Shown here one piece after another: positions 1 through 5,900 of a stretch of DNA of 64,000 nucleotides. A model generated the notes under the pieces. It worked only from the letters and a program-made list of their open reading frames with translations. It did no database searches and was not told the DNA's origin. The DNA is taken from contig LDWW01000019.1 of the NCBI GenBank assembly GCA_001045525.1, positions 1 through 64,000 of the forward strand, in the 5' to 3' direction. The stretch is from Chitinispirillum alkaliphilum. GTDB taxonomy: Bacteria > Fibrobacterota > Chitinivibrionia > Chitinivibrionales > Chitinispirillaceae. The first letter of the stretch is position 1. Every line of letters starts with the position of its first letter. A program made the translations under genes and the position numbers.

Positions 1-27
1 TCAACACAAGTAAATACCTATATTGCT

Positions 28-430
28 AAACCGCGCAAGGGGGGACGGAAGGTGGCACTTTCTTAAGTGCCAGTGCCCTCAAAGGGCGGAGCGTCTTCGC
101 GAAGCCCTACAAACGAGGCACCGAGGAGGAATCCCGATTTCCATCGGGAAGCCTGAAGGAGAACCGGTAAGTTTACAGTGAGCCTGGCCGAACTGTCTTC
201 GGCAGCCGCCCAAATCATCCTTATTCTCTTTCGCAAGCTCTTTTACTTTTAATTATAATTTTTAAGAACACTTCGACTATCCCGATTCGGAAATCGGGAT
301 GCTCCCTTCGACTGGGAGCTCAGGACAGGCAGTGCGAGCGGAAGTGAGAGAAAAACCGGAATCAAGGTCCCAAAGTCCCCTTCAGGGGATTTAGGGGCCT
401 CTTAAACGGTAATACAAATATCTCCACTGC
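28..430 (+). ncRNA. Candidate structured RNA element, copy 1
   Basis: Hairpin 54-60/65-71 (GGCACTT, loop TCTT, AAGTGCC) is followed at once by an outer helix in which GTGCC (73-77) pairs with GGCAC (117-121). Further hairpins: GCCGAACTGTCTTCGGC near 187-203 and CCCGATTCGGAAATCGGG near 282-299. No ORF or ribosome binding site is associated. Calling it an RNA is inference from structure shared between copies; transcription is unproven. Confidence 0.5.
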
Positions 431-822
431 AAACCGCGCAAGGGGGACTGCAGGTGGCACTTTCTTAAGTGCCAGTGCCCTCAAAGGCCGGAGCGTCTTC
501 GCGAAGCGCTACAAACGAGGCACCGATCCCGCATTCTGCGGGAGAGCCAAGGAGAACCGGTAAGTTTACAGTGAGCCTGGCCGAACTGTCTTCGGCATGC
601 GCCCAAATCATTCTTATTCTCTCTCTCAATCTCTTTTACTTTCAATTAAATTTTTAAGAACACTTCGACTATCCCGATTCGGAAATCGGGATGCTCAGTG
701 CGAGCGGGAGCTCAGGACAGGCAGCGTGAGCGGAAGTGAGAGAAAAACCGGAATCAAGGTCCCAAAGTCCCCTTCAGGGGATTTAGGGGCTTCTTAAACG
801 GTAATACAAATATCTCCACGGT
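431..822 (+). ncRNA. Candidate structured RNA element, copy 2
   Basis: Nearly identical to copy 1. Hairpin 456-462/467-473 (GGCACTT/AAGTGCC) and outer helix 475-479 with 519-523 (GTGCC/GGCAC). It differs from copy 1 mainly in a short segment after the GGCAC strand (531-545) and in substitutions and a short indel around 695-725. The short ORFs within it are not conserved in the other copies. Confidence 0.5.
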
Positions 823-1050
823 AAACCGCGGCAGGGAGGACTGCAGGTGGACAATTCCTATTGTCCAGTCCCCTCCAAAAAGCGGAGTCCTCGGAGCGCT
901 ATAAACGAGGGACCGAGGAGGTACGACGAGCCGAAAGGAGGACCGGTAAGTTTACAGTGAGCCTGGCCGAACTGTACCCGGCAGCCGCCCGAATCATCCT
1001 TATCCTCTCTCTCAATCTCTTTTACTTTCAATTATAATTTTAAGAACACT
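823..1050 (+). ncRNA. Candidate structured RNA element, copy 3 (3'-truncated, covarying helices)
   Basis: The hairpin is now GGACAAT (849-855) / ATTGTCC (860-866): four of seven base pairs differ from copies 1 and 2, and every change is compensated. The outer helix is GTCCC (868-872) with GGGAC (909-913), again a paired change from GTGCC/GGCAC. The flanking blocks (GTAAGTTTACAGTGAGCCTGG and the pyrimidine tract) stay the same. The unit ends after TAAGAACACT near 1050 and lacks the G/C-rich 3' third. Confidence 0.55.
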
Positions 1051-1066: not shown

Positions 1067-2683
1067 CTACTTTCTCTTCCTCTTAAGCCCTCCCGTTTTT
1101 GCCTTTGAGACGACAGGACGTTTACCGTTACGAAGTTTCTTGCACTTTAACAAAATTTTCTCAGCATCGGCAAATGGTACTGTCATAAAGGAGAATCTGT
1201 CATGGACTTCAACTTCCTCAATCAAAGATCTTGAGACGCCGCTCTCTTTGACCACAAAATCGACGAGTGATTTTTTGGTGAAATTAAAATCCTTGCCCCT
1301 GGCGATAAACAGACGGGTTTTTCCGGTTGAAAGATCATTCTCTCCCCTGTTTTTACTCCTTTTCACCTGAGATATTTTTCCATAACTGCTCACGTCAAAA
1401 GATTTACTGAACGATAACTTCAGTACAGCAGTGAGTACCTCCGAAGGCTGCACATCACCCTCCAGTAACTCCTCAGCCCACGATTCAAAATGTGCTTCAG
1501 CGGAAGCATTGGAGATCAGACTTTTTAATTCTTCTGTGATATTTTTCTTTTTGTTTTCGACAATCTGCCCGATTTCAGGCACCTGCAGTTTTCTCATAGT
1601 CACTTTGGCCGCACGCTTTATGAAACCCAGCTTACTGAACTCATCCGGAGTGATAAAAGTCACAGCAGTCCCCTGGTTTCCCGCCCGTCCAGTTCTTCCA
1701 ATTCTATGTATATAGGCTTCGGGGTTTTGGGGAAGAGAATAGTTGATCACGTGGGTAAGATTGTTGATATCAATCCCCCTTGCTGCAACATCTGTGGCCA
1801 CCAGCAGGTTAATCTGCTGATTGCGGAATTTTCTCAGAATTGATTCTCTCTGTGACTGGGAGATATCTCCGTGAATTCCCTCAGAAGAATATCCTCTGTC
1901 TATTAGACTTGAAACAAGCTCATCAACATCACTTTTAGTTCTGCAGAAAACGATCCCATAGAAACGGCTCTCCATGTCAACTATCCTGCACAGAGCCTCG
2001 AACTTGTCTCTTCTGGACACCTCATAATAGATCTGATCTGTCAAATTGGTGGTAAGTGATGTTTTCGTTTTTATGTGCTTTGTGTCAATCATATATCTAG
2101 AAGCGAGGTTTTTTATTCTCTCAGGCATGGTTGCAGAAAAAAGCAGCACTCGCTTGTAATCAGGTGCCTGCTCGAGGATCTGCTCGATATCCTCTATAAA
2201 ACCCATATTGAGCATCTCATCACCTTCATCAAGAATCACAAACTCCACCTTCTGGAGATTGAGTGTTTTCCTTCTGATATGATCCAAAAGTCTTCCCGGT
2301 GTGCCTACAACTATTGATACACCTTTTTTTAATCTGTTGAGCTGAAGCTCCATTGACTGGCCACCATAAATGGGAGCAATGGTCAGCCCGCTGTCGCCCT
2401 TCAGGGAATTGAATTCCTCACAAATCTGTAACACCAGCTCTCTTGTTGGAGCAAGGATCAATGCCTGAACATGTTTCATCTTCGGGTCAAGCATATCCAA
2501 AAGGGGCAGGGCAAACGCAGCAGTCTTTCCAGTCCCGGTCTGGGCCTGAGCAATAATATCCGATTCGTCGTTGAGGAAAAGGGGTATAGTTAGGCTTTGA
2601 ATCTCAGTTGGCTCTTCAAAGCCTTTTTTTCTTATTGAATTGAGTGTTTTTTCGGAGAGTCCTAAGTCTTTAAATTCTTTCAT
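1067..2683 (-). CDS. deaD: DEAD-box ATP-dependent RNA helicase, DeaD/CsdA-like
   Basis: Cytoplasmic ATP-dependent RNA helicase of 538 residues, expected to act in ribosome assembly and RNA turnover. Visible motifs: Q-motif region (FKDLGL...PTEIQ, residues 4-29), Walker A AQTGTGKT (47-54), PTRELV, TPGR, SAT (183-185), and the second RecA lobe with CRTKSDVD, ATDVAARGIDI and HRIGRTGRAG. A DbpA-type RNA-binding domain follows (about 450-520), then a basic tail. That layout fits DeaD rather than RhlE or DbpA. Motif II reads DEGD (152-155) instead of DEAD, an Ala-to-Gly change that is clear in the DNA. The gene stands alone: 246 bp separate it from smc upstream, and the repeat array lies directly beyond its stop. 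Family assignment is secure; the symbol is less so. Confidence 0.93.
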   Translation of the reverse strand: MKEFKDLGLSEKTLNSIRKKGFEEPTEIQSLTIPLFLNDESDIIAQAQTGTGKTAAFALPLLDMLDPKMKHVQALILAPTRELVLQICEEFNSLKGDSGLTIAPIYGGQSMELQLNRLKKGVSIVVGTPGRLLDHIRRKTLNLQKVEFVILDEGDEMLNMGFIEDIEQILEQAPDYKRVLLFSATMPERIKNLASRYMIDTKHIKTKTSLTTNLTDQIYYEVSRRDKFEALCRIVDMESRFYGIVFCRTKSDVDELVSSLIDRGYSSEGIHGDISQSQRESILRKFRNQQINLLVATDVAARGIDINNLTHVINYSLPQNPEAYIHRIGRTGRAGNQGTAVTFITPDEFSKLGFIKRAAKVTMRKLQVPEIGQIVENKKKNITEELKSLISNASAEAHFESWAEELLEGDVQPSEVLTAVLKLSFSKSFDVSSYGKISQVKRSKNRGENDLSTGKTRLFIARGKDFNFTKKSLVDFVVKESGVSRSLIEEVEVHDRFSFMTVPFADAEKILLKCKKLRNGKRPVVSKAKTGGLKRKRK

Positions 2684-2929
2684 CTTTCGTAATCCAAATT
2701 CTTTGCCACAGAGGCACGGGTTAATATCTGCACTCAGTACAGCTTCGCGGGCTGAATTGATGCATTATAAGTTAAATCCTGTATAGATGTGTTAAAAGAG
2801 ATTTTTTTCAGTGGGAGATCTTTTTTTACACAGATTTTGACAGATAATTCTCTGAAGAACTGATCGTCTTGGATACCCTCTCCTAATCAGCATAAACTGA
2901 TAGTGAGAGCTAATCTATTATTCTTAAAC

Positions 2930-5900
2930 TCAGGCAGCCTGCAGTTCCGCCTCATCAAACTTAACAGAAACGATAGTTGAAATACCAGATTCCTGCTGAG
3001 TGACACCATAGAGCAAGTCTGCAGCTTCCATAGTTCTCTTATTGTGAGTAATCACAATGAACTGTGTTTTTTCTGCAAATTTTCTCAAAACCTTTACAAA
3101 CCTGCCGATATTTGCATCATCGAGAGGAGCATCCAGCTCATCGAGAATACAATATGCAGATGGTTTCACAAGATAGAGAGCGAACAAAAGAGAGATAGCG
3201 GTAAGAGCTCGTTCTCCCCCGGAGAGAAGCTGTACACCTCTCATCTTTTTCCCTGCAGGACGCACATTGATATTTATGGCAGCTTCGAGAGGATCCACGT
3301 TCTCTTCGAGCTGAATATTTGCTTCTCCACCTTCAAACAGAGTAGTAAACATTTCGGTAAAATATTTCTGAACCAGTTCAAATGTTTCAAGGAACTGAGT
3401 TCTCGCTTCCTTATCAAGTTTTTTGATCGCCTTTTCAAGATCATCCACAGCAGTCTGCAGATCATCTCTCTGTTCAGTTAGTTCTTTGAGACGCTGACTC
3501 TCGGTTTCATAGTCCTCCAGAGCAGCCATATTTACCTGACCCACATGTTTTATTCTCTCCTTAAGCATAGAAATATTTTTCACGACATTACTGTCTTCCT
3601 CCTCAATTACCGGCATATCTTCAGGTGGACTTTCCAGATCAATTTCGTAGGCCTCCCAGATTTTCTCCCTGATCCTTCGCTGTTCCTGTTCATCACGGGT
3701 CTGCTTGATCTCACTGTCATGTACCAGGTTTGAAATCCTCTCCACCTCAGTCTGGTCTTCCCTCAGTTCTTTGCGTGACTGCTCAATTTCGTTAAGGCTG
3801 CAGTTATAGGACTCGCGAACTGAATCTTTAATCTGTTCGAGCTCCTTTCGCTTCTCCTTATGTTTTTCAAGTTCCTGCTTTTCAGATACAAGTCTGTTCT
3901 GAAGGTCCTCGATTTCTCTTTGGGCCCTGACTTTCTCTTCATTTTTCGCGGCCTTGCGCTCACCAAAGAGCTTGTTATCCCTTGTAAGCCGTTCGATATC
4001 CCTTTTATCCTGAGCTAAGCGGTTGTTCAACCCATGGACCTCAAGCTCGATGTTTTTGAGATGTTCAACAAGAGTGCGGCGTTCCTCTTCCATAAGACGC
4101 AAAGCGCTCCGTGCTTCATTAACCTGCTCCTCAAGAGATTCACGACGGTTTTGGAATGTAGCCTCTTCCGCCTCACCGTTGGAGATAATCTCTTCAAGCT
4201 CCACAATTTTTCTCTTTAGATCGGTCAGCTCCGGCTGCAGTACATCAATTCGTGAAACAATATTCTGTATTTCGTTTTCATAGTGTGAAATATTTGTCTG
4301 CTGTTCCTGTTGTTTGCGATGTCCCCGGTTTATCAACTCATCAACCTCAACCAAAGCCATTTTCGCTTCATCTCTGTTTATTACACACACATCCTTGTCA
4401 GTAAGCACCTTCCCATAATCTTTCTCAAATACCACAACATCTTCGGAGAGTTTCTCGATTTGCTGTTTTCTCTGAAGAATGCCGGCATTCTCCTCTTTAG
4501 CATCCCCAGCCACCACAGTTCCGTCAAAACTGCATATCACTCCCTGCTCAGTTACCGCCACACCATTGGTTTTACAATTTTTGGTGAATTGAAGGGCAGT
4601 AGGATAATCGGGGGAAATAAACATACTTCCGAACAGATAATCAGCCAAAACCGAACAGTCTTCTTCCGTTTTAACAAACGAAGCGACTTTGACCAGCCCT
4701 TCATCATTCTCAACCGGAGAGTTTTTCTCAAGTGATCCAAGTCTCTCAAGTGAAATCATACATGCAGAACCAACCTTCTCTTTTCCAAGATACTCTACCG
4801 CCGCTTCAAGCTGAGCATCGGTGTCAAAAACGATGGTCTGAATTCTGTTGCCAAGCACTTTTTCAACCAGTGAGACAACCTTTTCATCCTCAATTTTTAT
4901 CAGATCGGCAACAATTCCCCTTAATCCCGCAGGCTTATGATTAAGAATGGCCTTCACTCCACTTTCATAACCTTCAAAGGAGGCATCCAGACCAGCAAGA
5001 AACTTAAGCTGAGATTTGCAGGAAGCGATCTGGGCCTCGAGGTGCTTTTCACTCTCCACCAGCGCCCTGTACCGTTCATCCTCTTTTTCGATCCGCCCCG
5101 CAAGCACCTCTCTTGCCTGGAGATGATTACGGTTGGTCTCATCCACCTCTGCGAGCTGTCTTTTACAAACCTCGATCGACTCCTGATACTCTTCGAGCCG
5201 GTTTTCCAGATTCATTACTTCCCGCTCATCACGGTCCTTTCTCTCCAGGGAATTACTGAGATTGGACTTTGCAGCACTGAGTTTATTTCTTGTCTCACCC
5301 TGGATATTGATCATTTCAATCTGATCCCGTCCAAGCTGATCCGCCAGCTCCCGCCTGGAGGAGAGGTTTTTATCAAATGCAGCAAGCTCGTCATTGGCTC
5401 CATCAACCCGCTCTTTGCTTTTCTGAAGCTGTGATTCCCTTTCAACAATACCCTTTTCAATCTGTGTTCTAAGCTTAATGGCTTCTTCGATCTGAGTATC
5501 GAGGGACTGGGCATCCTGCTCATATATTGCGATGTTTTTGTGAAGATTATTCATCCGCTCTTCATTCACAGAAATAAACCTGTCAAGATTAATGATTTTC
5601 TCATCACATTCACTGACATTTCTGGTTGCAAGCCCAAGCTCGTTTTCCTTCTCGAGTGCAGCGAGCTTCATTTTCTCAATACGTGACTCCCCTGCTGCTA
5701 TACGGGCCTTTAAAGTCTCCCTTAGTGACTCTTTCTCTGCAAGGAAAGCCTTTCTCTGTTTCATTGCCTGGGCCAGCGCAGTGTAGCGGCTGTTTTCGAA
5801 ACCAACTTCAAGTGATTTGAGATTATCATAATAACTTTTATAGCGTCTGGCCTTTTCGACATGACGGGCGAGCATACGAACCTGTCGGTCAGCTTCCTGC

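What the first reader, a model, noticed from the sequence alone, without database searches (positions are those of the whole stretch)
28..1050. Tandem structured repeat with compensatory base changes: candidate new ncRNA family
Three ~400-bp units in tandem share blocks of sequence but no reading frame. In copy 3 the first hairpin changes from GGCACTT/AAGTGCC to GGACAAT/ATTGTCC, four base pairs altered on both sides, and the enclosing helix changes from GTGCC/GGCAC to GTCCC/GGGAC. Such paired changes are evidence that the helices are kept by selection or that the elements were copied from different structured parents. I recognise no Rfam family.
Basis: partly seen in the sequence, partly recalled or inferred. 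Interest (0 to 1): 0.85.

Follow-up and report, generated by a model that had tools for sequence, protein, structure and literature searches.

The report
Structured RNA ends of IS1182 elements
The three tandem repeats are remnants of the folded end of a jumping gene (an IS1182-family insertion sequence) whose complex RNA-like fold has been kept by paired mutations across several bacterial genera; this fold is not in the RNA family database, and I found no report of one on this kind of transposon.

Summary
The window holds three ~390-bp tandem units (28-1050) with the compensatory changes described. They belong to a dispersed repeat: 60 model matches at the loci fetched from the window's own genome, and matches in 8 further genomes of the phylum (9 of 168 in all).

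A 21-sequence alignment gives a closed multi-helix fold of ~150 nt. Of its pairs 93.7% are standard (80% after shuffling), and 13 pairs change on both sides. Rfam has no match.

The element is not free-standing. In a complete copy in a related genome it starts 8 nt after the stop codon of an intact 469-aa IS1182-family transposase and ends 12 nt before the right terminal inverted repeat. The same order (transposase C-terminus, RNA, inverted repeat, one strand) recurs, often degraded, in other copies from two bacterial families. In one genome a second, diverged copy lies inverted next to the left repeat. Most copies have lost the transposase gene (MITE-like); the window's units are such relics in a rearranged array.

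So the claim of a new structured family is supported, but as a module of a mobile element. Its role is inferred: most likely a cis-acting part of the transposase transcript. DNA-level action is not excluded.

The parts
23..213 (+). Structured core, unit 1 (long form; P1 mismatched, a chimera of two subtypes)
   Evidence: cmsearch with R1, 129.5 bits, E 1.2e-35
426..606 (+). Structured core, unit 2 (subtype GCGCA/TGCGC)
   Evidence: cmsearch with R1, 119.6 bits, E 8.6e-33
818..992 (+). Structured core, unit 3 (subtype GCGGC/GCCGC)
   Evidence: cmsearch with R1, 156 bits, E 3.2e-43
53..72 (+). P2 hairpin, unit 1: TGGCACTT-TCTT-AAGTGCCA
   Evidence: Sequence; P2 covaries across copies
455..474 (+). 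P2 hairpin, unit 2: TGGCACTT-TCTT-AAGTGCCA
   Evidence: Sequence
848..867 (+). P2 hairpin, unit 3: TGGACAAT-TCCT-ATTGTCCA (four compensated base pairs)
   Evidence: Sequence; pair counts
436..440 (+). P1 5' strand, unit 2 (GCGCA), pairs with 598-602 (TGCGC)
   Evidence: Sequence; P1 type counts over all copies
828..832 (+). P1 5' strand, unit 3 (GCGGC), pairs with 984-988 (GCCGC)
   Evidence: Sequence; P1 type counts
214..271 (+). Pyrimidine-rich tail after the core, unit 1, where the right inverted repeat lies in less decayed relatives; no recognisable inverted repeat is left in the window
272..360 (+). Separate palindromic REP-like repeat (CACTTCGACTATCCCGATTCGGAAATCGGGAT..) between units 1 and 2; second copy at 664-752
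361..428 (+). Second spacer repeat (AAAGTCCCCTTCAGGGGATTTAGGGG..); second copy at 753-819

Best explanation
The three units are transposase-less relics of the right end of a subgroup of IS1182-family insertion sequences. In the complete element (G016:C380, ~1.7 kb) the order is: left inverted repeat with a promoter, a 469-aa DDE transposase, a ~150-nt multi-helix structured segment that starts 8 nt after the stop codon, and the right inverted repeat 12 nt further on. In another family of the same order (G025) a diverged copy of the fold also lies, inverted, beside the left repeat. Shown: the anatomy, the conserved base pairing, and the spread of copies that kept the fold and lost the transposase. 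Inferred: the segment is transcribed as the 3' untranslated part of the transposase mRNA, since a promoter-like site and no intrinsic terminator were found, and it acts in cis for the element that carries it. It could control transposase production or tether the transposase to its own element end; this would explain why deletion derivatives keep it and keep its helices paired. The tandem arrays in the window's genome arose secondarily by recombination among copies and other palindromic repeats.
For: Structure: 21-sequence alignment, 93.7% of cells paired against 80.0 +/- 1.0 in shuffles, 13 pairs changed on both sides, covariation score 0.335 against 0.102, and 0.031-0.083 when slid by 1-3 columns. 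Wider 34-sequence set: 20 pairs changed on both sides (that alignment is fitted to the model). P1 types over all copies: GCGCC/GGCGC 36, GCGCA/TGCGC 24, GCGGC/GCCGC 13, GCGTT/AACGC 3. A structure-blind alignment of distant copies recovers P1, P3, a hairpin in the P5 loop, and P6. Context: the transposase hits NF033551 IS1182 with 347.5 bits, cut-off 270. The RNA follows on the same strand in the complete copy. Transposase C-terminal remnants end just upstream of the fold in further copies of G016, G025 and G011. In the own genome a remnant (C2:291205) precedes a partly deleted fold and an inverted repeat. A right inverted repeat lies 10-18 nt after P1 in 13 of the 33 copies tested, from six genomes. 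G025 derivatives keep both ends and vary inside; the four whose right repeat was recognised run from 507 to 1091 bp. Promoter TTGACA-17-TATTTT at the left end and no terminator-like site.
Against: Only one copy has an intact transposase. There is no transcription evidence. The strand test (G-U against A-C departures: 46 against 40, or 11 against 6) does not separate RNA from single-stranded DNA. Distant IS1182 transposases in the phylum (G024, G027, G075) show no such fold within the stretches fetched, so the fold is not needed by IS1182 transposition in general. No empty site or target duplication was demonstrated. Many copies in the own, G001, G006, G026 and G014 genomes have no recognisable inverted repeat, so their recent mobility is not shown.
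Confidence: 0.6

Rival explanations
1. The fold acts as DNA: each element end extrudes hairpins (cruciform or single strand) that the transposase or host proteins recognise, as subterminal structure. RNA is not involved.
For: IS1272, of the IS1182 family, inserts into DNA hairpins and cuts stems (PMC4923244), so this transposase family acts on folded DNA. The fold sits at element ends, in inverted orientation at both ends of G025 elements. The G-U/A-C test is inconclusive.
Against: It has a branched shape with a conserved internal loop (GNA/GNA in P4) and conserved single-stranded stretches (TATAAACG, AAGGAGAACCGG), more typical of RNA. The complete G016 element carries the fold at one end only and directly after the transposase stop codon.
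Confidence: 0.25
2. An independent structured ncRNA or mobile element (HEARO/OMEGA-like or group II intron-like) that merely inserted next to an IS.
For: Many solitary copies without a transposase; complex fold; high copy number.
Against: Near-constant spacing to the transposase stop and to the right inverted repeat where these survive. No HEARO, group II intron or other Rfam match up to E 1-5 that could be taken seriously.
Confidence: 0.05
3. A domesticated host ncRNA that hitch-hiked from the IS and now serves the cell.
For: Genomes G001 and G006 hold 10-16 or more copies without any detected IS1182 transposase.
Against: Copies are in arrays, chimeric, truncated or with large inserts; no conserved gene neighbourhood was seen in G025/G031; IS110 copies interrupt some.
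Confidence: 0.05
4. Relic without present function: base pairing is inherited from a few ancestral subfamilies and mixed by recombination, so the apparent covariation counts few events.
For: In the own genome most variation falls into two or three subfamilies, with recombinants. Shuffle tests do not allow for relatedness.
Against: At least four P1 types and several P2 and P3 types across genera, each paired; slid controls score far lower.
Confidence: 0.1

Closest known systems
IS1182-family insertion sequences (NCBIfam NF033551; e.g. IS1272)
   Same: Transposase family over the curated cut-off, DDE domain, single ORF, terminal inverted repeats.
   Different: An extra ~150-nt conserved multi-helix segment between the transposase stop and the right inverted repeat; also an inverted copy at the left end in G025.
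MITEs
   Same: Short, multicopy, transposase-less derivatives sharing ends with an autonomous IS.
   Different: They carry a long branched fold with compensatory evolution, not just a palindrome.
IS110 bridge RNA elements (PMC11208160)
   Same: Structured non-coding RNA encoded by an IS next to a terminus.
   Different: DEDD recombinase and target/donor-pairing loops there; here a DDE transposase, the fold lies after the transposase gene, and no guide function was tested.
HEARO / OMEGA RNA (IS605/IscB)
   Same: Multicopy structured RNA tied to a mobile element.
   Different: No Rfam HEARO match; the linked gene found here is an IS1182 transposase.
Mobile/repeat sequence candidates such as MRSC-65-2 (PMC11109978)
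   Same: Multicopy motif with covariation, sometimes near transposase genes, RNA or DNA form undecided.
   Different: MRSC-65-2 is described with a much simpler structure and no defined place in an IS.

Membership tests
IS1182-family insertion sequence | IS1182 transposase over the curated cut-off | tested here: met
   P0001 (G016:C380): NF033551 347.5 bits, cut-off 270, E 1.3e-103
IS1182-family insertion sequence | DDE transposase domains | tested here: met
   PF13751 and PF01609 on the 263-aa C-terminal part
IS1182-family insertion sequence | Terminal inverted repeats | tested here: met
   AGGCTGTCTCAAAAC / GTTTTGAGACAGTCT in G016:C380; extended GGGGGAAGTTCAGCCTGTCTCAAA in G025
IS1182-family insertion sequence | Insertion into DNA hairpins without target duplication (as IS1272) | tested here: inconclusive
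   The flank complementarity seen proved to be an extension of the inverted repeat itself; no empty sites available
IS1182-family insertion sequence | Window copies themselves carry transposase and inverted repeats | tested here: not met
   No IS1182 ORF beside the window units; no inverted repeat above chance. The window holds derivatives only
MITE derived from IS1182 | Same ends as an autonomous IS, no transposase gene | tested here: met
   G025 loci L153 and L158: left and right inverted repeats and right fold, 507-649 bp; L158 keeps a transposase C-terminal remnant. Not met for the window copies, which lack inverted repeats
HEARO (RF02033) | Match to the Rfam model | tested here: not met
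   No match up to E 1-5
Group II intron | Rfam group II model match | tested here: not met
IS110 bridge RNA | Associated DEDD recombinase | tested here: not met
   The linked transposase is DDE IS1182
IS110 bridge RNA | Loops complementary to target and donor DNA | not tested
   Not examined
Structured RNA | Transcription | not testable with these tools
   No RNA-seq available

The most novel reading that the evidence does not exclude
A DDE insertion sequence uses a structured RNA from its own end as a working part of transposition, for example an RNA bound by the transposase that tethers it to, or selects, the element end. This would be an RNA-assisted system outside the IS605/IS607/IS110 groups.
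Probability: 0.1. Interest if true: 0.92.

Novelty: new variant of a known kind. Interest (0 to 1): 0.62.

Why it matters
RNA-linked transposition is known for IS elements with HUH, serine or DEDD enzymes (general knowledge). A conserved multi-helix RNA-like module tied to a DDE IS1182 transposase and kept in its derivatives would extend structured RNA to another class of insertion sequence. It also explains a large, assembly-breaking repeat family in these genomes, and the complete 1.7-kb element in G016 is small enough to test directly.

Tried and rejected
Rfam at curated and permissive thresholds: nothing credible. Group II intron and HEARO: rejected on that basis. Plasmid, phage and viral-contig searches with the core: no match. 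A scan of genome contigs for the transposase found only the MAG that holds G016's two copies. The idea that the G016 element sits in a target hairpin, as IS1272 does, was dropped: the complementary flanks are an extension of the inverted repeat. G-U against A-C asymmetry as a strand test: inconclusive. Papers on IS1182 together with noncoding RNA, secondary structure or MITE: none of the listed titles or abstracts describes such an RNA; only PMC4923244 and PMC11109978 were opened, and the library holds open-licence papers only.

Full report
What is in the window. Bases 28-1050 hold three tandem units. Within each, only ~150-190 nt is the structured core; a covariance model made here places the cores at 23-213, 426-606 and 818-992 and finds no other significant match in the 64 kb. 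The spacers contain a pyrimidine-rich tail and two further palindromic repeats. The window begins at a contig end, and many other copies also lie at contig ends, because the repeat breaks the assembly.

A dispersed family. A DNA search of the own genome gives 62 matches. At the loci fetched from it the model finds 60 matches, 55 of at least 130 nt. In 168 genomes of the phylum, 9 have it: the own genome, the same genus (G001), other genera of the family (G006, G011, G014, G016), and other families of the order (G025, G031, G026). Plasmids and phages have no match, and one exact pattern found none in viral contigs. One genome, G016, matches a MAG named Fibrobacter sp., so the phylum is probably Fibrobacterota (inference).

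The fold. On 21 sequences aligned without using structure, 93.7% of cells pair (80.0 in shuffles) and 13 pairs change on both sides; sliding the partners by 1-3 columns gives 2-5 such pairs. The structure was drawn up on these same sequences, so the shuffles and slides are the relevant controls. In 34 sequences including distant ones, 20 pairs change on both sides (fitted alignment, so less independent). A structure-blind alignment of 18 distant copies recovers P1, P3, the P5-loop hairpin and P6. P1 alone has four paired types. Helices are also replaced or lengthened as blocks: P6 is GCCG/CGGC, ACCC/GGGT or GCCGTGGTT/AACCACGGC, and the P5 hairpin varies freely. These counts do not correct for relatedness; R-scape was not available.

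What it belongs to. In G016:C380 (L189) an intact 469-aa ORF, 2032-3441 on the minus strand, is an IS1182-family transposase. The fold, 1865-2023 minus, follows after 8 nt. GTTTTGAGACAGTCT follows 12 nt later and is the inverted repeat of AGGCTGTCTCAAAAC at the other end, so the element is ~1.7 kb. Transposase C-terminal remnants end just upstream of the fold on the same strand in L170, L171, L184, L158, L169, L121 and, weakly, L120 and L160. In the own genome a remnant at C2:291205 precedes a partly deleted fold and an inverted repeat. The motif AAATGCNGTGTTTACA that precedes many solitary copies reads as the last codons of the transposase (NAVFT; compare SACFT in G016), my reading. The right inverted repeat is recognisable 10-18 nt after P1 in 13 of the 33 copies tested, from six genomes.

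Left-end copy. In G025, L184 and other loci carry a diverged fold in the opposite orientation beside the left inverted repeat. It has its own paired P1 (GCGTT/AACGC) and P6. Inverted pairs with 69-78 nt between them also occur in the own genome at C71 (twice), C9 and C60. G016's complete element has no left fold, so the left copy is not a constant part of the anatomy.

How it may work. Shown: position, pairing, and persistence after loss of the transposase. A promoter-like site at the left end and absence of a terminator-like site make it likely that the transposase transcript includes the fold. Persistence in deletion derivatives suggests a cis role. Whether the active form is RNA or DNA is open: the G-U/A-C comparison is inconclusive, and an IS1182-family element is reported to act on DNA hairpins (PMC4923244).

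Known or new. Structured repeats near transposases are a recognised category (PMC11109978), and IS110 and IS605 elements encode RNAs. I found no Rfam family and, in the open-licence papers searched, no report of a structured RNA tied to IS1182. I therefore call it a new variant of a known kind.

Limits. One intact element only; no expression data; no empty sites; many copies are decayed, and the window copies have neither recognisable inverted repeats nor a transposase gene beside them, so their origin rests on homology to the better-preserved copies.

Noticed in passing
L046, L050, L053, L071 (G000:C21, C69, C16, C60): An IS110-family element (PF01548 hit) is inserted at the same point inside the fold, after ..GTAAGTTTACAGTGAG|TTACTATG; at L073 the same element follows CTGCAGTGAG outside a fold. 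It appears to target CAGTGAG.
   Followed up: partly
window 272-428 and 664-819: Two further palindromic repeat families (CACTTCGACTATCCCG.. and AAAGTCCCCTTCAGGGGATTTAGGGG) alternate with the cores in the arrays.
   Followed up: partly
L071:321-565, L116, L117, L118, L184:1177-1393: Large extra stems are inserted in loops of some folds, for example AGCCGGAGCACAGGATGTGCGGAGACCACGC in L184; a similar insert (AGCCGAAGCACAGGGATGTGCGGAGACAAGCACC) occurs in the own genome.
   Followed up: no
L157:1615-1788 and L155:2307-2439: The P6 loop of the left fold holds a long palindrome (CTTTGTAGGGGCACAAAATTTTGTGCCCCTACAAAG).
   Followed up: no
L071:8946-9341: Short-period repetitive stretch with overlapping open frames at the contig end (GAGCIKFGAGTAHSGAG..).
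   Followed up: no
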